A stretch of DNA of 64,000 nucleotides, taken from Methylophilus aquaticus (GTDB lineage Bacteria > Pseudomonadota > Gammaproteobacteria > Burkholderiales > Methylophilaceae). This document shows positions 1-33,251 of the stretch, in pieces. Position 1 is the first letter of the stretch. Every line of letters starts with the position of its first letter. Where the stretch lies: contig NZ_JAVCAP010000022.1 of NCBI RefSeq assembly GCF_030769565.1, positions 62,001 through 126,000 on the forward strand, in the 5' to 3' direction. Made by a program: the position numbers and the translations under genes. The notes beneath the pieces are model-generated. The model was not told where the DNA came from. It did not search any database and was given only the letters and a program-made list of their open reading frames with translations.

Positions 1-787
1 TGTCAAAAAATACGACGCGTTTGTTTTTACCAAACCCAGTGAAATAGGCATTGCCATGTCCTGAACGTGTTGAACCATCCATCACAAACAAGCCCTGGCT
101 GGCAAATCCGCATTTCTGCATCAGTGCTTCAATCCTGTTTTTCAGGCCGTGGTCTTCTAGCGGGGAAAATTTATTAAACAGCGGTGCAATCCAGGTTGGG
201 TACACAGCCAGCATAAACAGGTTGAATACACTCCATACTACCCATAGGTAGAACCACCACCCGCTGCCTGTACTTTGCATCAGCCATAGTGCGACCAGCA
301 GAATGGGGCCGCCCAGCAGTAAACCAACCAGGGTATGCTTGATCAGGTCATTAAAAAACATTCCGCGCGACATTTTATTGAAGCCAAACCGCGCATCCAC
401 ATTAAAGGTCTGGATGTAGTCAAATGGCAGTGTGGCAAGGCTAGAAAGCAGCATGGCAGAGCAGACCACCAGTGCGCCACGCACAATCTCATGTGAAGGC
501 AGCCATTGCTGCCACACATTGTCCAGTAATTGCAAAATACCACCGAGCGTCAGTGCCAGCAGGATAAAAGACTCCATGATGGTCTCACTTAAGCGGAGTT
601 TGACTTTGGCTGTTGTATAGTCTGCTGCGCGTTGATGTGCCTCCAGGCCGATCGTTTGACTAAAGGCTTGTGGCACCTGATGACGGTGACTTTCGATGTG
701 GCGAATGTGGCGCATGCCCAGCCAGATTCTGATGAATAAGCTGATCGCAATCAGGGCAACGAATATTTGTGTGAAGAGTGCTGACAT
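1..787 (-). CDS. M48 family metallopeptidase (Ste24/CAAX prenyl protease 1-like), 3' part outside window
   Basis: An open frame runs leftward from an ATG at 785-787 to the window edge with no stop, giving 262 codons of a partial protein. It starts with a hydrophobic segment (MSALFTQIFVALIAI), then a charged stretch with histidines, then several more hydrophobic segments around residues 60-170. It ends in a region containing VMDGSTRSGHGNAYFTGFG. This is the pattern of the peptidase M48 N-terminal domain followed by the start of the catalytic domain of Ste24-type zinc proteases, where SxxNAxxxG-like residues precede the HExxH motif. HExxH itself would lie beyond the left edge, so catalytic competence cannot be checked. 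In bacteria such inner-membrane proteases are thought to act in envelope protein quality control. It is divergent from orn. Confidence 0.75.
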   Translation of the reverse strand, partial: MSALFTQIFVALIAISLFIRIWLGMRHIRHIESHRHQVPQAFSQTIGLEAHQRAADYTTAKVKLRLSETIMESFILLALTLGGILQLLDNVWQQWLPSHEIVRGALVVCSAMLLSSLATLPFDYIQTFNVDARFGFNKMSRGMFFNDLIKHTLVGLLLGGPILLVALWLMQSTGSGWWFYLWVVWSVFNLFMLAVYPTWIAPLFNKFSPLEDHGLKNRIEALMQKCGFASQGLFVMDGSTRSGHGNAYFTGFGKNKRVVFFD

Positions 788-908
788 AACCTTATGTGTA
801 ATATGTAAATGTTACTAAAGACCTATTTTGATGGATTTATACCCACCTTGTTCAATGAACTGAATATAATGTCTCATTTTAATGGAAATCATGACAAGAG
901 GGACGCAA

Positions 909-1475
909 TTGGCGAATAATCAGGATTATTTAATCTGGCTGGACATGGAAATGAGTGGTTTGCAGCCAGACAGCGACCGTATTTTGGAGTTGGCAGCCGT
1001 GGTGACTGACGCACAATTGAATATTGTGGCTGAATCACCGGTGTTGGTGGTGTATCAATCAGATGCCGTATTGGATGGCATGGATGCCTGGAACAAGGGG
1101 ACGCATGGTCGTAGCGGGTTGATCGATAAAGTCAAAGCTTCCACGCTGGACGAAGAGGCCGCGACCGATGCCATGTTGAGTTTTCTAAAAGCACATGTGC
1201 CGGCAGGTAAGTCACCCATGTGTGGTAACTCAATCTGTCAGGACAGAAGATTTATGGCGCGTTATATGCCGCGTCTGGAGCAGTTTTTTCACTACCGCAA
1301 TCTCGACGTCAGCGTATTTAAAGAGTTGGCGCGTCGCTGGCGTCCGGATATTTACAGCGGTTTCAAGAAAGCCAGTCGACATGAAGCCCTGGCTGATATT
1401 TATGAGTCTATCGATGAGCTCAAATATTACCGTGAACATTTTTTGATCATGACAGCCCCGGCAAAAGCCGAGTAA
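909..1475 (+). CDS. orn: Oligoribonuclease
   Basis: 3'-to-5' exoribonuclease of the DEDDh family that degrades 2-5-nt RNA fragments, the last step of mRNA decay. The DED residues appear in [11 protein letters not shown] (Exo I), [10 protein letters not shown] (Exo II) and the final YYREHF region (Exo III), and the protein matches the usual length of about 180 aa. Start choice: in-frame ATGs exist at 882 and 891 but neither has a ribosome binding site. The TTG at 909 has AGAGGGA five bases upstream and gives [10 protein letters not shown], which lines up with the family N-terminus, so I use it (188 aa); the ATG at 882 would give 197 aa. The gene stands alone, divergent from the M48 protease and convergent with glgA. 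Confidence 0.93.
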
Positions 1476-1511
1476 CCAAAAGCAGAGTAACGTAGACCTC
1501 AGATAAAAAAA

Positions 1512-1529
1512 GACGCCTAAAAAGGCGTC
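1512..1529 (-). terminator. Rho-independent terminator of glgA
   Basis: Read leftward there is a 7-bp perfect stem (GACGCCT/AGGCGTC) with an AAAA/TTTT loop followed by seven T residues. It lies about 100 bases past the glgA stop. On the + strand the A tract precedes the stem, so it would be a poor terminator for orn. Confidence 0.8.
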
Positions 1530-1627
1530 CTGAGGGAGGAGAAGTTAGCTTTGGAGAAGCTTGAGTAGATATAAGCATCTTCTGTGCCAACTTACATTCC
1601 CTTTTGAGTCCAGTATTTCCCAGTTTT

Positions 1628-3079
1628 TTAATGCTTAAACATCCTTTGGTAGAGTGTTAAATAGTGTTTTGCACTGGTTTTCCAGCTGACATCCTGCTTC
1701 ATGGCCTGCTTTTGCAATTGCTGCCAGTGACCAAAATTGGCATGCATTCGGATGGCTTGTTGTAATGTGACCAAAAGTGTCGAGGCCGTGTTTTCGGGTA
1801 ACACAAAACCGGTCATATTATGTGGCAACTTCCCATCCTCCGTGACTGTTCCACCACTGACTGAGTCCGCCAACCCGCCTGTATTCGCGACGACAGGAAT
1901 CGTTCCGTAGCGTAATCCATACATTTGGTTTAATCCGCAAGGCTCAAAGCGGGAAGGCATCACGAAAATATCTACTCCTGCCATCATGCGGTGCGAGAGT
2001 GGCTCGTTGTATCCTATGGTCGCCGAAACTTTTCCTGGATAACGCTGCATCAATCCCAGAAAGTCTTGTTCTAGCTTGGGTTCACCACCTCCCAGTATTG
2101 CCAACTGACAACCTTGCTCAATCAGTGCTTGCGCGATCTCTAACAGCAGGTCCAGACCCTTTTGATGGGTCAGCCGACTGACCACACCAAGTAAAGGGCA
2201 GTTTGCATCCTTGTTTAATCCGAGTTCTTCTTGCAATATCTGTTTTACCTTGGCCTTGTTGCCCAGTTTTTTCTCACTGTAATGGACTGGAAGATGTACA
2301 TCTTGAGACGGATCCCAAGCTTGAGTATCAATCCCGTTAAGAATGCCTGTCAAGGCTCTGGCTCGGTGTTGCAAAAGACCCTGAAAACCAAAGCCAAATT
2401 GCTCTGTTTGGATTTCTCTGGCATAGGTCGGACTTACCGTGCACAGAGCATCCGCATAATAGAGACCTGCTTTCATGAAGGATACGTGTCCGAAGAACTC
2501 GTATCCTTCGGGCTGAAAATCACGATCATTTAATGTCAGTCTATGGCGCCAGTCAGGATGAAAATTGCCCTGGAATGCTATATTGTGAATGCTGAATGCA
2601 GACTTTACAGAGCTGCCCATCTGCTTTAAGTAATAAGGAACCAAGCCGGTTTGCCAGTCATTACAATGGACAACATCTGCCTGCCAGTCAAGTAAGTTGT
2701 TTTTATTCGCCAGAATTGCAGCGACTTTAGAAAGCACTCCAAATCGCAGGGGATTGTCTTGCCAATCCCCATGTTGGGGGTGATGGTAAGGGCTGCCATC
2801 ACGATCATAGAGCGCAGGTTGATCCACGAGAATCAGCGGGATATTGGTGCCTGGTAATGTTGTTTGGTATAGCTCACAGTCAATATCGTTAAATACTTTA
2901 AGGCCTCCCAGTCGTTTAGCTGGTGTACATTGTGACCGTATTCCTCGATAGGCTGGTAGTACAATATGGATATCCACTCCTAAAGATCTGAGTGCAATTG
3001 GCAAAGCACCACTTACATCTGCCAAGCCACCAGTCTTAATCAAGGGGAAAACTTCAGAAGTAACAAATAATAAGCGCAA
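1628..3079 (-). CDS. glgA: Glycogen synthase (ADP-glucose type)
   Basis: GT5-family glycosyltransferase that extends alpha-1,4-glucan chains from ADP-glucose in the cytoplasm. The protein has the N-terminal ADP-glucose-binding signature LFVTSEVFPLIKTGGLADV (KxGGLADV) and, near the C-terminus, the GT-B retaining motif SRFEPCGLNQMYGLRYG and the TGGLADSV segment. The open frame extends to an ATG at 3142. However, the 21 extra residues do not fit the family N-terminus, and a TACAAT element (-10 like, minus strand, 3154-3149) sits directly before that ATG. I prefer a TTG at 3079 preceded by AAAGAGAA, giving 483 aa (family about 480). No other glg gene is in the window. The gene diverges from fluC. 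Confidence 0.92.
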   Translation of the reverse strand: MRLLFVTSEVFPLIKTGGLADVSGALPIALRSLGVDIHIVLPAYRGIRSQCTPAKRLGGLKVFNDIDCELYQTTLPGTNIPLILVDQPALYDRDGSPYHHPQHGDWQDNPLRFGVLSKVAAILANKNNLLDWQADVVHCNDWQTGLVPYYLKQMGSSVKSAFSIHNIAFQGNFHPDWRHRLTLNDRDFQPEGYEFFGHVSFMKAGLYYADALCTVSPTYAREIQTEQFGFGFQGLLQHRARALTGILNGIDTQAWDPSQDVHLPVHYSEKKLGNKAKVKQILQEELGLNKDANCPLLGVVSRLTHQKGLDLLLEIAQALIEQGCQLAILGGGEPKLEQDFLGLMQRYPGKVSATIGYNEPLSHRMMAGVDIFVMPSRFEPCGLNQMYGLRYGTIPVVANTGGLADSVSGGTVTEDGKLPHNMTGFVLPENTASTLLVTLQQAIRMHANFGHWQQLQKQAMKQDVSWKTSAKHYLTLYQRMFKH

Positions 3080-3172
3080 GGGGTTCTCTTTAATGGGACG
3101 AAAGCATCGGGGCGCCAATAAAATAGCCTGTTTATGATACATTGCATTATTGTATTTTAGAAGGGACGTGAG

Positions 3173-3556
3173 ATGAAATTTTGGATGGCCGTTGGCTTAG
3201 GCGCGGCTCTGGGGGCATGGGTGAGATGGGGATTAACTACCTGGCTTAATGCGGTGGGTGTGATTCCATTAGGTACGTTTTTGGCGAATGCCATTGGTGG
3301 TTTTTTAATGGGTGTTGTGCTTGGTTTTTTTCAGTTCATCCCTCAACTTTCACCAGAATGGCGACTGTTTATAGCAACAGGCTTTCTGGGTGGATTAACA
3401 ACATTTTCAACATTCTCCGCGCAAGCATTTGAGTTGCTACAAAAACAGGCATACATGTGGGCCATGCTGTATGTTCTGGCGCACGTAGTGGCATCCATAC
3501 TGTTGACGATGCTGGGCTATTGGATGGTCATGCGTTGGCATTCTGCCCCATTGTAA
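3173..3556 (+). CDS. fluC: Fluoride ion channel Fluc/CrcB
   Basis: Small inner-membrane protein that exports fluoride as an antiparallel dimer. The 127-aa sequence has four hydrophobic segments and the family motif GGLTTFSTFSAQ (residues about 74-85), which contains the Phe-box and channel-lining residues. An early Gly/Arg region (GAALGAWVRWGLTT) and the NAIGGFLMG segment with its pore Asn also fit. The start ATG has AAGGGACG upstream. Only about 90 bases separate it from the glgA start chosen here, and I see no fluoride riboswitch in that space. Confidence 0.93.
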   Translation: MKFWMAVGLGAALGAWVRWGLTTWLNAVGVIPLGTFLANAIGGFLMGVVLGFFQFIPQLSPEWRLFIATGFLGGLTTFSTFSAQAFELLQKQAYMWAMLYVLAHVVASILLTMLGYWMVMRWHSAPL

Positions 3557-3586
3557 CGTTGGGTTGAAGTATTTCTCTCAATAAAA

Positions 3587-3612
3587 AAGAGGGCCAGGTG
3601 GCCCTCTTTTTC
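3587..3612. terminator. Bidirectional terminator between fluC and rne
   Basis: A perfect 7-bp stem GAGGGCC/GGCCCTC with loop AGGT (3589-3606) is flanked by A6 on the left and T5 on the right, so it can end both fluC (rightward) and rne (leftward). Confidence 0.85.
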
Positions 3613-3639
3613 TTGGTGTTGCACCTAACTAACGGGTGT

Positions 3640-6282
3640 TTATTTCTGGGTTTCTACCATTACTAATGGGGCTTCACCTGCAGCGACTTCATCTCCCTTT
3701 TTCCATTTTGGAGGTGCCTGACGTGTTTTCTTGGCTTTAGCCGGTGCTGCAACTGTTTCGCTTGGTGTTGCCACGGCTTTAGTTTCTACCAGTTGAATAC
3801 CGTCATCAATCTTGGCTGCTTTTGCTGCAGGTTTGTTTTTACCGCGCACAGGTTTTTTCTTGGGTTCTACAGCTTTTTCAGGGCTTGCAGTCTCTGCAAC
3901 GGCAGCGGCTATTTCAACCATCTCTATTGCAGGCTTATCTGCGGCGGTTTTAGCCGCTGCTTCACTGCCTTTACCGCGAGATTTTCCACCACGTGAGCGG
4001 CTACGTGCAGGCTTGGTCACTTCTGCAGTAGATGCAGCATCTGTGTTTGCAGCTTCAGCATTTTCCGACACGCGTTCTTTTGCGGTAGCGACTTCAGGCA
4101 CATCAGTTTTTGCAATTGCGACAACCTGCTCTATATGCGTTGCTGGCATTGTCAGTTCTGTTACATTCACAAGAGGCTGTGTCTGTTCATTCACTACGAT
4201 GGGTTGTGTTGACTCGGCACTCACTGCCTGATCATCCCGCTGGCGACGATCACGGCGGCCATGACGGTTGCGTCGACTACCGCGTTCACCACGCTCCTGG
4301 CGCGCTTCACCGGTTTGTGAAGTCAAGACAGGGGCTTGTTGCTGGTCAGGTTTATTAGCTTCCGCTGCTGGTTGACGCTCTTTATTGAACTGCTTGTCAT
4401 GTACCGGCCTATCCTGTTTCGTCTTGTGCGCAGCCTGATCAGCGGGTCTCTCAGATTTCTCTGTACGGTCACCGCGCTCTTGCTGGCGTTCACGCTGTTT
4501 GTCACGACGGTTGCGGTTTTTATTGCGGTCACGACTTTGCTCGCGTGCTTCACGCACCGGTTTGGTGGTTTCTTCAACCTCTGGTTTTTCTTCCATACCT
4601 AACCAGGATTTGATTACGCCAAACAGCGACTTTTTCGCTGCGACAGGGGCTGGCTTTTCTTCTACAATAGGCGCTGCAGTGGCGGGTGTGATCCCTTTCA
4701 CTACGGCTTCTGCTTTTGCCGGTGCGGCCGGTTGTTGCAAGTTATGCTGGTAGTCAGACTCAGTTGGCAGGTCCACCATTTTGTAGCTGGCCTGCGCGGT
4801 TTCTTCATTGACATCATCATGACGGATACGCGTAATATTGTAATTTGGGGTTTCCATGTGGATATTGGGAATCAACACTACTTCAACGCCCGTACGTTGT
4901 TCAATTTTGTGAATATCTGCACGTTTTTCATTCAACAGGAAAGTCGCAGCTTCAACAGGCAGTTGTACCTGAATAATTGCGCTGTTGTCCTTCATTGCTT
5001 CTTCTTGTGTGATGCGCAGAATATGCAAAGCAGTGGATTCGATACCACGGATGTGTCCTGTGCCGTTACAGCGTGGACAGGTCGCATGGTTGGTTTCACC
5101 CAGGCTAGGGCGCAAGCGCTGACGCGAGAGCTCCAGCAGGCCAAAGCGCGAAATCTTGCCCATTTGCACGCGAGCACGGTCATGATGCAGGGCATCCCGC
5201 AAGGCGTTTTCTACCTCACGCTGGTTACGCTGGACTTCCATATCAATAAAGTCAATGACGACCAGGCCACCCAGGTCGCGCAGACGCATTTGACGCGCCA
5301 CTTCTTCAGCCGCTTCGAGGTTGGTATTGAACGCTGTTTGTTCAATATCTGACCCTTTGATTGAGCGGCCAGAGTTGACATCGATCGATACCAGCGCTTC
5401 GGTATGGTCAATTACAATCGCACCCCCTGAAGGCAGGCGCACTTCGCGTGCAAATGCCGTTTCAATCTGATGCTCAATCTGGAAGCGGGAAAACAGCGGA
5501 ATTTCATCCTGATACAGTTTGACGCGCGCAACATTGCCCGGCATCACGTGGTTCATGAACTGTACCGCCTGTTCATGGACATCCACGGTGTCAATCAGGA
5601 TTTCACCGATATCGGCACTGAAATAATCGCGGATCGCACGAATCACCAAGCTACCTTCCTGATAAATCAGGTAGGCGCCCGGCTGGAAGTTAGAGGCATC
5701 CTCAATGGCTTTCCACAGTTGGGTCAGGTAGTTCAGATCCCACTGCAGTTCTTCAGCATTGCGTCCGATACCGGCCGTACGCGCAATAATGCTCATGCCG
5801 TTAGGGATTTCCAGTTGTGCCATGGTGTCGCGCAATTCATTGCGCTCTTCACCTTCTACCCGGCGCGAAACACCACCGCCACGCGGGTTGTTTGGCATCA
5901 ATACCAGATAACGACCTGCCAGCGAGATAAACGTAGTCAGGGCAGCGCCTTTGCTACCACGTTCGTCTTTGTCGACCTGCACAATGACTTCCTGACCTTC
6001 TTTGATCACATCCTGAATACGGGCGCGGCCAGCGTCCGGTTTGTCCTGGAAATAGCTGCGCGAAATCTCTTTAAAAGGCAAAAAGCCGTGTCTGTCAGTA
6101 CCATAGTCGACAAACGCGGCTTCCAGTGAGGGCTCAATACGGGTGATCACCCCTTTGTAGATATTGCTTTTACGCTGCTCTTTGCCAGCATGTTCAATAT
6201 CCAGGTCAATCAGTTTTTGTCCATCGACGATAGCAACGCGCAACTCTTCAGATTGCGTTGCATTAAACAACATTCTTTTCAT
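3640..6282 (-). CDS. rne: Ribonuclease E
   Basis: Essential endoribonuclease that starts mRNA decay and matures rRNA and tRNA; its C-terminal half normally scaffolds a degradosome. The 880-aa protein begins [17 protein letters not shown]. It then has an S1 domain (about residues 35-120), the RNase H/DNase I-like catalytic part with [10 protein letters not shown] and [10 protein letters not shown] carrying the two magnesium-binding aspartates, and the zinc-link motif CPRCNGTGH. The long C-terminal tail is rich in Arg, Glu, Ala and Pro, low-complexity and probably disordered. The frame could extend 22 codons upstream, but the ATG at 6282 has AAGGAG at ideal spacing and gives the conserved N-terminus. 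It diverges from rluC, as in many proteobacteria. Confidence 0.96.
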
Positions 6283-28741: not shown

Positions 28742-29725
28742 CTAAATCACATCGAGCGGACTGCTGGCTGCCAATCCGCCTTTGTTAAGCACATGGGTAT
28801 AAATCATGGTGGTCGTTACATCTGCGTGCCCCATTAAATCCTGCACCGTACGAATATCCTGACCACCTTCGAGCAAATGCGTGGCAAAACTGTGGCGCAA
28901 GGTGTGTGGGGTGACTGGCTTGGCGATGCCCACTTTTTCAACTACTTTTTTCACGGCGCGTTGCACCGTCTTTTCATCTGCATGATGGCGACGCACCTGA
29001 TGGGTTTGCGGATCAAGCGACAGCTTGGTTGCCGGAAACACATACTGCCACCCCCATTCTTTGCCTGCACCAGGGTGCTTTTTGTCCAATGCCTCAGGCA
29101 TGAACACCTCGCCAAAGCCCTTAGTCAAATCCTTGCTATGCAACGCCTGCACAGTTTCTAAATACGCCTGCAGCGGAACAATCAAACTCGCTGGCAACAT
29201 GGTGACGCGATTTTTATAGCCTTTATCGGTACGCACAAAAATCTCACGTTTGGCAAAATCAACATCATTCACCCGCAAGCGCAAACACTCCATCACCCGC
29301 AACCCGCTGCCATACAACAAACTCGCAATCAGCCACATCGAGCCATCCAGGTGACCAAGCACCGCCTGCACCTCCTGCTTGTTGAGCACCACTGGCATGC
29401 TTTTGGGCGTTTTTGCCTGTGCCACATGCCCCAGCAAGGGCAACTCGATCTCCAGCACCTCTTTATACAAAAAGAGCAGGGCGCTCTTCGCCTGGTTCTG
29501 CGTGCTGGCTGACACGTTTCGTGTCACCGCCAGGTGGGTTAAAAAATCCTCAACTTCACTCGCTCCCATATCGCGTGGGTGCCGCTTGCCATGGTGCAAA
29601 ATATAGCGTTTAATCCATTGAATATAAGCCTCTTCGGTACGCTTGCTGTAATGCTTCACCCGCAATCGTTCGACGATAAGAGGAAACAGCTTTGGAGCAG
29701 GTTTTACTTCAGGTGTGTTTTTCAT
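28742..29725 (-). CDS. intI: Integron integrase IntI (tyrosine recombinase)
   Basis: Site-specific recombinase that inserts and excises gene cassettes at attI and attC sites. The 327-aa protein has the SAM-like core-binding N-terminus (YSKRTEEAYIQWIKRYILHH) and the catalytic residues Arg143 (GSGLRVMECLRLR), His274/Arg277 (HTLRHSF), His300 (LMGHADVTTT) and Tyr309 (MIYTHVL). The decisive trait is the extra segment specific to integron integrases before the second motif (about residues 210-236: EALDKKHPGAGKEWGWQYVF). The ending GGLAASSPLDVI matches that of IntI1-type proteins. It appears intact. It is transcribed away from an attI-like site, the standard integron layout. A weak AAGGG ribosome site precedes the ATG; no LexA box was found. 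Confidence 0.95.
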   Translation of the reverse strand: MKNTPEVKPAPKLFPLIVERLRVKHYSKRTEEAYIQWIKRYILHHGKRHPRDMGASEVEDFLTHLAVTRNVSASTQNQAKSALLFLYKEVLEIELPLLGHVAQAKTPKSMPVVLNKQEVQAVLGHLDGSMWLIASLLYGSGLRVMECLRLRVNDVDFAKREIFVRTDKGYKNRVTMLPASLIVPLQAYLETVQALHSKDLTKGFGEVFMPEALDKKHPGAGKEWGWQYVFPATKLSLDPQTHQVRRHHADEKTVQRAVKKVVEKVGIAKPVTPHTLRHSFATHLLEGGQDIRTVQDLMGHADVTTTMIYTHVLNKGGLAASSPLDVI

Positions 29726-29839
29726 AGCTAAGCCCTTTTATATAGGTGTAATAATAAAATACAAACTATTGATTTAATAATGATAAATAATTTTTATAAA
29801 TTTATAGCCCCTGGACTAAATAAAAATTTAGGTTCGTTT

Positions 29840-29865
29840 TTGGGGTCTAATTAACGTTAGATTTT
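29840..29865 (+). other. Putative attI site (core GTTAGAT)
   Basis: The sequence TCTAATTAACGTTAGAT contains a core GTTAGAT at 29856-29862, which fits the integron consensus GTTRRRY, with an inverted TCTAA arm just upstream. It lies 131 bases upstream of the intI start, on the side where attI sites are found. Crossover would be expected between G29856 and T29857. Assigned from position and core sequence only. Confidence 0.6.
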
Positions 29866-30054
29866 GTCAGGTATTCGGACGAAGAGGAAAAGCGATTTCG
29901 GGGTGGTAAACGTTCAAGCATATCAAAAAAATGTCGGTGAATAAAAGGATTGGTCTGTATTCAAAAACAAATCATAAATTTGCCTACCCCAGAAACTAAC
30001 CAACCCCCATTTAAACTATCTACTAATTTAGGATTGGTATGCCTATGAAACAAT

Positions 30055-30109
30055 CTCTAACCCATTCCAGCGGATCGCCTTCGGTGTCCGCTGAACTCAA
30101 ACGTTGACG
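30055..30109 (+). repeat. attC recombination site (59-base-element type)
   Basis: A 55-base imperfect palindrome with the attC order: left outer box CTCTAAC (30055-30061), left inner box CAGCGGA (30068-30074), a small loop stem CGCC/GGTG, right inner box TCCGCTG (30087-30093), then AACTCAAAC and the outer core GTTGACG (30103-30109). The arm spacing and the AACTCAAACGTT string are as in classical cassette-associated sites. The outer core departs from GTTRRRY at two positions, and the left box starts with C rather than a purine. Confidence 0.75.
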
Positions 30110-30529
30110 CTGTAGAATAAGTGTTTTAGAAAAATCAAGGCATACCATGACAATAAATAGACCTTCACAATCGCCCCAAAAGCATCTAACTCAATACAGT
30201 CTATGGTTAAAGCACTCCTCAAAATACAATCACTCAACCCCTCAACAGCTTTTTCTACAGCTTCGTTAGCCCACAGACAATGACTACTCGTCTGGATTAG
30301 TACCTGTTTCAAGCATTCGGGCAACCCAAAAAACAATGTAGAGTCTTAATGCTAAAGATGCCGCAGTTGCAAAAAAGACTAAAAAAACTCCTTAGACCCT
30401 CATAAAGCCAAATATTTTTGGCACCTTTTTTCATCCTCATGGCATTATCTAATTGAAGTAAATTAAGCCAGAATCGATTAATGGTTTTGCCGATTAAATT
30501 ACGCCCTCTATTTTCAATCTAGGTATATG

Positions 30530-30602
30530 GTTTAATTGATATTATGAAAAATTATACGCTCGTTTACACGCCGTCATTGGGACGGCTACTTAATAGTTAG
30601 GC
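30530..30602 (+). repeat. Probable degenerate attC and cassette junction (core GTTAGGC)
   Basis: A perfect consensus core GTTAGGC at 30596-30602 directly precedes the leader of the 30619 gene. An inverted repeat GCCGTC/GACGGC (30570-30585) supplies an inner stem, and GTTTAAT (30530-30536) is a possible left outer box. The arms do not match each other well, so the left limit is uncertain. Confidence 0.5.
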
Positions 30603-30618
30603 CCCACAGGAGAGTGCA

Positions 30619-31332
30619 GTGACAGATCTAGTCGCGAATGTCGCCGTCATTGGCCGATTTCAGCTTATGCCGGGAATACTTCCCGTTCGACTTGAAGCGC
30701 CCAACGTCGAGTGTCTTGTTGCTCACGCATTTCCAAGCCACATCGAAGACCCGACGCGCGGCATCAAGATCGATACGAGCGACTGCACCGTCTTCACTGT
30801 GACACACCGCGATAGGGGCGATCTGGACCTCGCCAAGATCGAGAACGTCAAGCTTTTGTTTGAGCAGAGCCTTTCCGCTATAAGCGAAGTATCTATTTGG
30901 ACAAAGGCGGGAGACGTCGTTGGGGAAATGTCTTCCTTCATTCGCCAGATTGGAACGACGGACGTAAAGGCATTCTTTGCACAGGGGGCGAACGAGACTT
31001 TGATTGGTTGGGTAAGTCCTGCATTTACATTCGACCGCAAGGCAGCAGCGATGATCGCCGGCTTCTTGTCAAACATGATCGTCTCAAACGGACCTGCGGC
31101 AAATCCAATACCCCCGATAACAAGGCGAGTGATGAGTTCGCTTGACCTTATCAACCTTGGATTCCATACAGAGTCCTTCGTTAATCTGTTCTCACTGGTT
31201 GATGATCTCACCCAAGAAGTGATCAAGGCAGGCATGACGAAGCGTGGCCTGAGTGATGATGATCAAAAGGGCCTTCTTCGGGCGATCAAGGAGGAACGCC
31301 TTAAGGTCTCTCAAGAAACACCTTCTAAATGA
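30619..31332 (+). CDS. Integron cassette protein of unknown function
   Basis: 237-aa protein with a GTG start (AGGAGAG seven bases upstream) that begins 17 bases after a GTTAGGC cassette core, as cassette genes usually do. I recognise no domain. The sequence looks soluble and mixed alpha/beta, without signal peptide or membrane helix; the first half contains an ECLVAHAF...TVFTVTHRDRGDLDL stretch and the C-terminus is charged and helical (RAIKEERLKVSQE). Its codons end in G or C more often than those of the AT-rich flanks, which suggests recent transfer. The downstream attC expected after the stop is missing; an IS110-family element begins within a few bases of it. Confidence 0.75.
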   Translation: MTDLVANVAVIGRFQLMPGILPVRLEAPNVECLVAHAFPSHIEDPTRGIKIDTSDCTVFTVTHRDRGDLDLAKIENVKLLFEQSLSAISEVSIWTKAGDVVGEMSSFIRQIGTTDVKAFFAQGANETLIGWVSPAFTFDRKAAAMIAGFLSNMIVSNGPAANPIPPITRRVMSSLDLINLGFHTESFVNLFSLVDDLTQEVIKAGMTKRGLSDDDQKGLLRAIKEERLKVSQETPSK

Positions 31333-31339
31333 TTGATTT

Positions 31340-33010
31340 TAAATAAGGTATTTAAGCCATATTTTCGCTTTCGACGAGTTTCATGCCCATTTTTTCGGCC
31401 CGCTGAGCCAATTGCCGCAATACCCTTTCTCTGTAGCGCTCCTCAAAATAGTCTTGGCCTTGATCGGTATACTCCTCGCCTTTGGTGAGCATGGTGTATA
31501 TCAGCCGTGCCAGTTTGTGTGCGGCGGCGGTCACGGCTTTGGGTTTGTCCATATGTGCGCACATTCGGCGAAAGTATGCGCCTAGCGCTGATTGGCTGCT
31601 ACGTAGTGCAGCAGCGGCTAATTTCAATGCCTGTGCAGCGCGGTTGGCGACACGTTTGGTTTTACCGCTCAGCACTTTGCCTCCAGTAATGCGGGTGCCA
31701 GGACACAGCCCCAGCCAACTGGCAAAATGTTTGGCTGAGGCAAAGCGTGACATGTCTGCGCCAGTTTCACTGATGACTGCCAGCGCAGTGGTCACATCAA
31801 TGCCGTCTATACGAGTGAGGTCTACACCACACAGCTGGTACAACTGTGTGCGCAGATCAAACTTTGGCGCATTGCGGGCACGTCCACGCTTTTTACCTTT
31901 TGCGGGTACGCCATCATAGGCCTGCAAACTCCGGAGCTTGGCTTCAATCTCCTGGTCGCATTCAGCCAACTGTGTCACGATAAAATCGAACATCGCCAGC
32001 GCTTGCTTGAGTGCAAACAGATGCTCTTCTCGCCAGTGCCCTTGCAGGCTTTTGGCAATCTCGTCGTGGCTGGCGCGGATGCGCACGTTTTTGAGTGCAG
32101 CCAGCACTTGTCCATCACGTTCACCAGCAATGATGGCACGTAGTATCTTCTGCCCAGATTCTCCTGCGATATCCGAGATGACATTGGTCAGTTGAATGTT
32201 CATCTGTGTGAGCGCTTTTTGCATATGCTGCACTTGCCTGCCTTAGTCTTTTAAGAGCATACCGCGTTGCCGCCACAGCGAACGCAGGGCACATACCCCC
32301 TCTGACGGGCGAAACGCACCTTGCAACAAACCGTAGGACATGAGTTGTTGCAACCACTGGCAATCCAGCACATCGGATTTACGTCCTGAGACATTCTTGA
32401 CATGACGGGCATTGACCAGCAACACCTTGAAACCGCGCGCCTCCAACAACTCAAACACAGGAATCCAGTACACCCCTGTGGACTCCATCGCAACTGTATC
32501 AACACCACAAGTTTTAAGCCAATCCGCCAAGGCGTGGAGGTCAGCCGTAAAACTCTTAAATTCCCGTACTGGCTCGTCATCTCGGTCAGGAGGAACGGCC
32601 ACATAATGTGAGGCGCTCCCAATATCGATACCCGCAGCGTTGGGATGCGTGATGGTTATCGGGCCAGACTTGCCGGGCTTGAGTCGGTTATTGCGATTGC
32701 ATTGTGTCATGATTTGCTCCATCATTCGTGATTGAATGTGGCGCTGCATCGGGAACGTCGTCAAGCTCACTCTCTCAAACGGGATACCTGCTTGCGGAAA
32801 ACCTCGCAACACGGGTTCACCAATATCGATGACGTCTCCCTGACCATGCTAACCCGCGGGCAGAATGCACCATTGCTTTATCGGTCTTCCGCAACGCCAC
32901 ATTCTACTTTGCCACTTCGGGAGCTACTTGTGTTTCTTCGGCGCGATTTGCGGCATGGAGCCGATTACTTCGCTAACCCATCTCTAGGGACTTCCCCTTC
33001 CTGTCAAGTA
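31340..33010 (-). mobile_element. IS110-family insertion sequence (approximate limits)
   Basis: A single leftward IS110-type transposase frame, broken by one stop, plus about 300 bases of non-coding DNA upstream of it. IS110 elements lack classical terminal inverted repeats and target duplications, so the ends are estimates: the left end is bounded by the cassette gene stop at 31332 and the right end by a separate open frame reaching 33054. TGATTTTA (31334-31341) and TAAAATCA (33029-33036) form an outer inverted pair, but in AT-rich DNA this could be chance. Confidence 0.7.
31352..32710 (-). pseudogene. IS110-family transposase, interrupted by an in-frame TAA
   Basis: The N-terminal part (from an ATG at 32710 with GGAG upstream) has the DEDD RuvC-like domain: AAGIDIGSASHYVAV (first Asp), VAMESTGVYWIPVFE (Glu) and GRKSDVLDCQWLQ (Asp pair). 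The C-terminal part is the transposase_20 domain, including the serine region YFRRMCAHMDKPKAVTAAAHKLARLIYTML. Both parts are in the same frame and are separated only by a TAA at 32243-32245, between ...MLLKD and GRQVQHMQKALTQ. A single C-to-T change (CAA to TAA) would explain it. Restart at the ATG at 32233 would give a 293-aa fragment without the nuclease domain, so the element is probably not autonomous. Confidence 0.88.
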
Positions 33011-33053
33011 AAATCCACCCAATCATCCTAAAATCAGGGTGATTTTGCATTTT
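32711..33053 (-). other. Non-coding upstream region of the IS110 element, possible bridge RNA locus
   Basis: About 340 bases without a credible gene, upstream of the transposase. IS110-group elements encode a structured bridge RNA in this position. Structure is present: GAATGTGGCGCTGC (32734-32747) pairs with GCAACGCCACATTC (32891-32904) with one mismatch. GCTAACCC occurs twice (32848-32855, 32972-32979), and a short hairpin AAAATCA-GGG-TGATTTT lies at 33030-33046. Assignment as bridge RNA is inference from position and family. Confidence 0.35.
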
Positions 33054-33251
33054 TTACATCCTTGGTTTGTAAATCACCTCAACCTGTGACTGACAATCTT
33101 CAATAGCCCATAAAGGGTTAAAGTGCATCTCTCTAGTCGGCTTTTGTTGCGGATCATTTGTTACTTCGCGGGCCAAGATGATTCGCGCGCAAAGCCCCCA
33201 TTTCTTAATCTGCCTGACAAGCACGCGTAGAATGATCTCCCGATTGAGCCA
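33054..33251 (-). pseudogene. Possible gene remnant (65 codons, unknown)
   Basis: A leftward open frame with protein-like composition (WGLCARIILAREV, EMHFNPLWAIEDCQSQVEVI) ends at a TAA at 33054-33056. It has no start: it begins after a TAG at 33252-33254, with no credible upstream continuation. It may be the 3' end of a gene cut by integron or IS activity. I recognise no family. Confidence 0.3.

What the first reader, a model, noticed from the sequence alone, without database searches (positions are those of the whole stretch)
28742..31332. Small chromosomal integron in a methylotroph
An apparently intact integron integrase with the IntI-specific segment is followed, on its upstream side, by an attI-like core (29856), a hairpin attC (30055-30109), a second consensus core (30596) and a gene starting 17 bases after that core. 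This is the standard integron layout in a genome region otherwise filled with housekeeping and C1 genes. The two first units carry no clear gene, so they may hold small RNAs, tiny proteins or decayed cassettes.
Basis: partly seen in the sequence, partly recalled or inferred. Interest (0 to 1): 0.8.

Follow-up and report, generated by a model that had tools for sequence, protein, structure and literature searches.

The report
Worn integron hit by attC-targeting elements
A small, partly decayed gene-capturing device (integron) sits in the chromosome of a methanol-eating bacterium, and one of its apparently empty units is a 159-base parasite whose larger relatives land on the integron's own recombination sites in many related bacteria.

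Summary
The integron is real but worn. The integrase (28742-29725) is a true IntI (TIGR02249, 462 bits; cut-off 265) with all catalytic residues and low dN/dS. attI is supported: in nine relatives leader conservation ends at the core (29856). The attC at 30055-30108 is supported by a covariance model built without this genome (27.8 bits; next hit 8.6). The core at 30596 is not an attC by that model; it ends a dispersed 163-bp repeat. Fifteen of 20 genus loci share the flanking genes: an ordinary sedentary chromosomal integron, a kind described in a related methylotroph in 2008.

The surprise is one 'gene-less' unit: 30106-30264 is a miniature inverted-repeat element with GTT on both sides, inside the attC's R' core. 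A second copy lies in another attC of this genome. Related miniatures and full-length elements (1.76-1.82 kb, IS1182-family transposase) occur across the order: in a search that did not ask for the target, 25 of 32 terminal-repeat flanks were GTT/AAC, against 4 of 80 in a viral background. The papers searched held no report of attC-targeting IS1182 elements; ISfinder was not consulted.

The parts
28742..29725 (-). intI, integron integrase, 327 aa, R143 K168 H274 R277 H300 Y309 all present
   Evidence: TIGR02249 462.2 bits, cut-off 265; separated from the genome's two Xer proteins, 99/97 support; dN/dS 0.06-0.14 against eight relatives, dS over 1 in all eight and so rough
29834..29862 (+). attI core region, crossover core GTTAGAT 29856-29862
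   Evidence: blastn conservation ends at 29856-29864 in nine relatives; GTTAG core kept in 13 of 18 relatives' leaders; sequence
29863..30054 (+). first unit, no ORF of 40 aa or more found within it; its first part (to 29945) is also in G005 (L052)
30055..30105 (+). attC, R'' (CTCTAAC) to the GTT of R'; its remaining R' bases lie after the inserted element at 30268-30271
   Evidence: model R1 27.8 bits over 30055-30108; empty site obtained by joining the flanks
30106..30264 (+). 159-bp MITE-like element: ends GACGCTGTAGAATAA / TTTTTCTACAGCTTC, GTT at 30103-30105 and 30265-30267
   Evidence: second copy C35 of the same genome, 98% over the 167 bases aligned
30440..30602 (+). dispersed repeat ending in the core GTTAGGC (30596-30602)
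   Evidence: 82-84% identical at C11, C14, G007 and G014; last 47 bp 98% at C35; sequences diverge just after the core
30619..31332 (+). gene after the second core, 237 aa, GTG start, function unknown
   Evidence: no NCBIfam, Pfam or PADLOC family, PHROG only at E 0.19; found in no other of 399 genomes
31352..32812 (-). IS110-family transposase gene with one in-frame stop (codon 190 of 487)
   Evidence: NF033542 in both halves
32973..33226 (+). repeated right-hand end, begins CTAACCCATC (like an attC R''), no R' core
   Evidence: 70-83% matches at C11, C25, C34, C35, C42, G008 and G014

Best explanation
The locus is an old, small sedentary chromosomal integron whose integrase is probably still competent but whose array is mostly worn out. 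IntI recognises attI (core 29856) and attC hairpins. Only one recognisable attC is left, and a 159-bp non-autonomous element (30106-30264) was inserted at the GTT of that attC's R' box, duplicating GTT. The element belongs to a family whose full-length members encode an IS1182-family transposase and whose inserts lie preferentially at attC R' cores across the order; the transposase probably recognises the attC core or its fold as landing site. Shown by sequence: IntI, attI, attC, the element, its GTT flanks, its second copy, the relatives and their target bias. Inferred: that transposition by such a transposase put it there, that the target is read as a folded site, and that IntI is active.
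For: IntI: TIGR02249 462 bits, catalytic set and IntI insert, dN/dS 0.06-0.14. Locus: 20 of 22 genus genomes have an IntI over the cut-off; 15 of 20 genus loci carry right-flank genes, 8 of these also left-flank genes (only about 2 kb was fetched on the integrase side). attI. attC. Element: same boundaries in two different attCs of the genome; three further named genomes with it at attC-like sites (Sulfurisoma, Gallionellaceae MAG, Azonexus), in two of them reversed relative to the attC; pattern GTT+terminal repeat: 33 matches in 21 of 399 genomes, reversed-pattern control 0; terminal repeat alone: 25 of 32 flanks GTT or AAC in the 30 loci fetched of 70 places, against 4 of 80 in viral contigs (one of the 25 is the window itself); attC-like upstream half at 17 of 30 sites against 128 of 1909 other GTTs; right-hand GTT in 10 of 11 short copies and 5 of 7 full-length ones; IS1182 model over its cut-off in 4 of 6 transposases.
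Against: No transposase of this kind was found in the genome itself (the tool warns that an empty answer shows nothing). The window copy's left end departs from the family repeat (GAATAA for GAAAAA), so it may be long immobile. The copy in G014 has TTT/GGT flanks, not GTT. A stricter first version of the attC test gave 11 of 30 sites against 77 of 1909 and failed the window site itself; the looser version was made after seeing that, and it recovers 24 of 33 known attCs. Some sites are not evidently attC (L134, L137/L156, L141), two full-length copies have GTC on the right, and no second end was found in 4 of 15 fuller loci. Seven of 32 flanks were neither GTT nor AAC; the control pattern gave 7 matches in the same search. 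A promoter scan of 29700-30700 found no sigma-70-like site.
Confidence: 0.85

Rival explanations
1. The 159-bp unit is an ordinary ORF-less gene cassette (30104-30265) moved by the integrase, perhaps carrying a small RNA.
For: Its boundaries coincide with G|TT crossover points in two different attCs of the genome, and ORF-less or RNA cassettes are known in Xanthomonas (sRNA-Xcc1; passage in PMC12444791).
Against: No attC hairpin at its 3' end by model R1; terminal inverted repeats; both orientations relative to the attC; relatives 1.76-1.82 kb long with an IS1182 transposase and the same ends; no Rfam family in the region up to E 1.
Confidence: 0.1
2. The locus is a fully working small integron with two attC-bounded cassettes.
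For: Intact integrase, attI and one attC.
Against: The only attC is split by an insertion, the second core has no attC by model R1, and an IS110 element with an internal stop follows the gene.
Confidence: 0.1
3. The attC bias is an artefact of searching with GTT in the pattern and of hosts rich in integrons.
For: The first order-wide search asked for GTT; several genomes contribute more than one site.
Against: The second search did not ask for GTT and still gave 25 of 32 GTT/AAC flanks; 12 of 13 AAC-side flanks fit at least 3 of the 4 RYYY positions of an attC R' read from the other strand; the right-hand GTT was never part of a pattern.
Confidence: 0.04

Closest known systems
Integron of Methylobacillus flagellatus KT (PMC2426708; abstract and passages seen)
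   Same: Chromosomal integron with IntI and cassettes in an obligate methylotroph of the beta-proteobacteria.
   Different: The present locus has one recognisable, split attC and few cassettes; the paper describes several annotated cassettes.
IS1111-attC group (Tetu and Holmes 2008; Post and Hall 2009; known here only through passages of PMC11187229, PMC11089894 and PMC12444791)
   Same: Insertion sequences that target attC sites of gene cassettes.
   Different: Those have a DEDD transposase guided by a seekRNA and sub-terminal repeats; the family here has a DDE-type IS1182 transposase, terminal inverted repeats and GTT on both sides.
IS1272 of the IS1182 family (PMC5678879; abstract and passages seen)
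   Same: IS1182-family element whose targets are inverted-repeat (stem-loop) structures.
   Different: IS1272 replaces the stem-loop and leaves no target duplication; here the attC stem stays and GTT is on both sides.
Group IIC-attC introns (recalled; titles only in reference lists and search listings)
   Same: Mobile elements that use attC as a landing site.
   Different: Ribozyme and reverse transcriptase, not a DDE transposase.

Membership tests
Integron | intI of the integron-integrase subfamily with complete catalytic set | tested here: met
   TIGR02249 over cut-off; residues and IntI insert
Integron | attI beside intI | tested here: met
   leader conserved to the core 29856; by comparison only, no recombination assay
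Integron | at least one attC | tested here: met
   30055-30108, 27.8 bits; split by an insertion
Integron | promoter Pc facing the cassettes | tested here: inconclusive
   no sigma-70-like match in 29700-30700; the scan is crude
Integron | recombination activity | not testable with these tools
   needs an assay
Sedentary chromosomal integron | fixed chromosomal site shared by relatives | tested here: met
   15 of 20 genus loci share right-flank genes, 8 also left-flank genes
Sedentary chromosomal integron | array of similar attCs | tested here: not met
   one attC in the window; relatives with canonical IntI have 2 or more in all 10 loci scanned
MITE of an IS1182-family element | short, no transposase gene, terminal inverted repeats shared with full-length elements | tested here: met
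   159 bp; ends shared, with differences, with 1.76-1.82 kb elements
MITE of an IS1182-family element | short target duplication | tested here: met
   GTT both sides in the window, C35 and 10 of 11 short copies; the left GTT was required when 8 of these were picked
MITE of an IS1182-family element | mobilised by the family's transposase | not testable with these tools
   no transposase found in the genome
IS1182 family (the full-length relatives) | match to the curated IS1182 transposase model | tested here: met
   NF033551 over the cut-off 270 in 4 of 6 (274-303 bits); the other two 260 and 269
IS1111-attC group | DEDD transposase | tested here: not met
   relatives have DDE_Tnp_1 / DDE_Tnp_1_6 domains
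Gene cassette (unit 30104-30265) | own attC at its 3' end | tested here: not met
   no model R1 hit there

The most novel reading that the evidence does not exclude
A branch of the IS1182 family, with its own miniature elements, has specialised on the R' core of integron attC sites across the Burkholderiales-type order. Because its ends begin GA, an insert leaves GTTGA in place of GTTRR, so the split attC may stay recombinogenic and the element may then be carried from array to array by the integrase as part of a cassette: a transposon that hitch-hikes on integrons.
Probability: 0.35. Interest if true: 0.75.

Novelty: new variant of a known kind. Interest (0 to 1): 0.6.

Why it matters
Known attC parasites (IS1111-attC elements, group IIC-attC introns) use RNA guidance or a ribozyme. 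A DDE transposase family that lands on the same core by another route would give an independent test of how folded attC DNA is seen by proteins other than the integrase, and it explains some 'empty' cassettes and split attCs that attC finders miss. The integron itself is ordinary and adds one more worn chromosomal integron.

Tried and rejected
Cassette reading of 30104-30265: rejected because of terminal repeats, both orientations and full-length relatives. attC at 30530-30602: rejected on model R1; the C35 copy, which has a R''-like GCATAAC, scored only 8.0 bits. IS1111-attC origin: rejected on the transposase family. The IS110 element as the partner of the miniature: rejected, different transposase type. 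First motif-and-fold attC finder: gave hits on both strands, so it was used only to collect the 33 training sites, not as evidence. Plasmid search with the miniature: no match; with one transposase (L157): 1524 plasmid records, all under 60% identity, not followed up. Function of the 237-aa protein: nothing found. No structure prediction was run. The decayed right-hand end and the 163-bp repeat were described but their origin was not resolved.

Papers: no claim of absence goes beyond the open-licence PMC library; searches for attC-targeting elements were made; for Methylophilus or Methylophilaceae integrons 51 and 97; for inactive integrases 98. Seen as passages only: PMC11187229, PMC11089894, PMC8618304, PMC9137128, PMC12444791, PMC2426708; abstract and passages: PMC5678879; the rest as listings.

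Full report
What was checked. The window is C15:62001-126000 of a 2.96-Mb genome in 45 contigs. One genus genome (G014) has a contig of 910207 bases, the length of a contig of Methylophilus sp. 13, so the genus is taken to be Methylophilus; this is inference. The left side carries formylmethanofuran dehydrogenase A and C, the formyltransferase FhcD and TrhO.

The integrase. The 327-aa ORF scores 462 bits with TIGR02249 (cut-off 265). In a tree of 36 proteins, 34 integrases are split from the genome's two Xer proteins with 99/97 support; the window protein lies in an unresolved fork, nearest to genus members (79% identity at most). It has the residues R143, K168, H274, R277, H300 and Y309 and the insert that the two Xer proteins lack. 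dN/dS against eight relatives is 0.06-0.14, with dS above 1 in all eight, so the values are rough. Of 61 genomes (own plus 60 relatives), 33 have an integron integrase over the cut-off; in the genus 20 of 22. The genome has a second intact one on C42 and a fragment on C35.

The locus. Of 20 genus integrase loci, 15 have one or both right-flank genes (33325, 33760) and 8 of these also a left-flank gene; only about 2 kb was fetched on that side. DNA conservation of the leader ends at 29856-29864 in nine loci (L050, L053, L057-L061, L064, L065), goes on to 29945 in L052, and stops earlier elsewhere. That is what an attI crossover point should look like. A GTTAG core is kept in 13 of 18 relatives' leaders.

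attC. I collected 33 sites from other genomes with a home-made finder, aligned them and built model R1. In the window, with filters off, it finds 30055-30108 at 27.8 bits (E 1.1e-4); the next hit is 8.6 bits. In the own genome it gives seven matches up to E 1, the best on C42 (53.2 bits), two on C14 and two on C35. Nothing was found at 30530-30602. The bottom-strand fold of 30055-30109 is only modest (z -1.47).

The 159-bp element. 30106-30264 has ends GACGCTGTAGAATAA and TTTTTCTACAGCTTC, with GTT on both sides. The same unit, 98% identical over 167 aligned bases, lies in a different attC on C35, with a different right-hand neighbour. Among 22 genus genomes one more copy is found, in G014, 75% identical, with flanks TTT and GGT. 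A pattern with both ends found four stretches in the genome collection: Methylophilus sp. 13, Sulfurisoma, a Gallionellaceae MAG and Azonexus; in Sulfurisoma and Azonexus it is reversed relative to the attC. GTT plus the terminal repeat occurs 33 times in 21 of 399 order genomes, the reversed control pattern 0 times. Thirty distinct sites were tested for an attC-like half upstream: 11 of 30 against 77 of 1909 other GTTs with a strict rule that also missed the window site, and 17 of 30 against 128 of 1909 with a looser rule made afterwards, which recovers 24 of 33 known attCs.

Full-length relatives. Of 15 fuller loci, seven have both ends 1762-1820 bp apart with a transposase ORF, four are miniatures of 158-159 bp, and in four no second end was found. 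The base triplet after the right end is GTT in 5 of the 7 (GTC in the two of G287) and in all four miniatures. The transposases pass the IS1182 model in 4 of 6 (274-303 bits, cut-off 270); the others score 260 and 269. In 11 short elements aligned, the right flank is GTT in 10; for eight of them the left GTT was a condition of the pick; one is 251 bp.

Target without asking for it. The bare terminal repeat occurs at 70 places in 41 of 399 genomes; the control pattern 7 times. In the 30 loci fetched there are 32 occurrences: 12 after GTT, 13 after AAC, 7 after other triplets; one of the AAC cases is the window. Twelve of the 13 AAC flanks fit at least three of the four RYYY positions expected of R' read backwards.

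How it may work (inference). IS1182-family members are reported to go for palindromes; IS1272 replaces stem-loops and leaves no duplication (PMC5678879). Here the attC stem stays and GTT is doubled, so the mode differs. The ends begin GA, so the insert leaves GTTGA, close to GTTRR; whether the split attC still recombines is untested.

The rest of the array. 30440-30602 is a repeat 82-84% identical at C11, C14, G007 and G014, and its last 47 bp are on C35; sequences part just after the core. It may be an orphan attI-like site or a worn attC. The 237-aa gene has no relative in the other 398 of 399 genomes. The IS110 transposase gene has one in-frame stop. 32973-33226 recurs at the ends of other arrays.

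Novelty. Chromosomal integrons of methylotrophs are known (PMC2426708; Methylophilaceae attCs, PMC11089894). attC-targeting insertion sequences are known for IS1111 (passages). I found no report for IS1182, which cover open-licence PMC papers only.

Noticed in passing
L054, L056, L057, L058, L059, L060, L061, L062 (orthologous intI in eight genus genomes): In 8 of 20 genus loci the integrase has lost catalytic K168 (Q/N/E/H) and H274 of HxxR (N/Q) together, with no stop codon in the aligned frame. Pairwise dN/dS stays low (median 0.107 in the 14 of 28 pairs with 0<dS<3; canonical ones 0.063 in 21 of 36). Model R1 finds no attC in 7 of these 8 loci (L058 has 9) and at least 2 in all 10 canonical loci scanned (several of these gave training sites); the attI core is missing in 5 of the 8 and in none of the 10. 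A retained non-recombinase role is possible.
   Followed up: partly
window 30440-30602; L100 (C11), L098 (C14), L109, L110: A dispersed 163-bp repeat ending in a GTTAGG-type core stands before different sequences at several places, with no intact integrase next to it at C11 or C14; perhaps an orphan attI-like platform.
   Followed up: partly
window 32973-33226; C11, C25, C34, C35, C42: A repeated right-hand end that starts like an attC R'' (CTAACCCATC) and recurs at the ends of other arrays or contigs of the genome.
   Followed up: partly
L046:3701-3811, L052, L055:3415-3525, L058, L064, L065: Many genus attCs found by model R1 are 111 nt long, which suggests a shared long loop.
   Followed up: no
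L014 (C35) 1-4200: A second, decayed integron locus of the same genome beside mutT/thiE-like genes, with an integrase fragment and several cassettes; gene names recalled from the sequence, not tested.
   Followed up: partly
window 31352-32812: IS110-family transposase gene with one in-frame stop inside the array; its ends and target were not determined.
   Followed up: no
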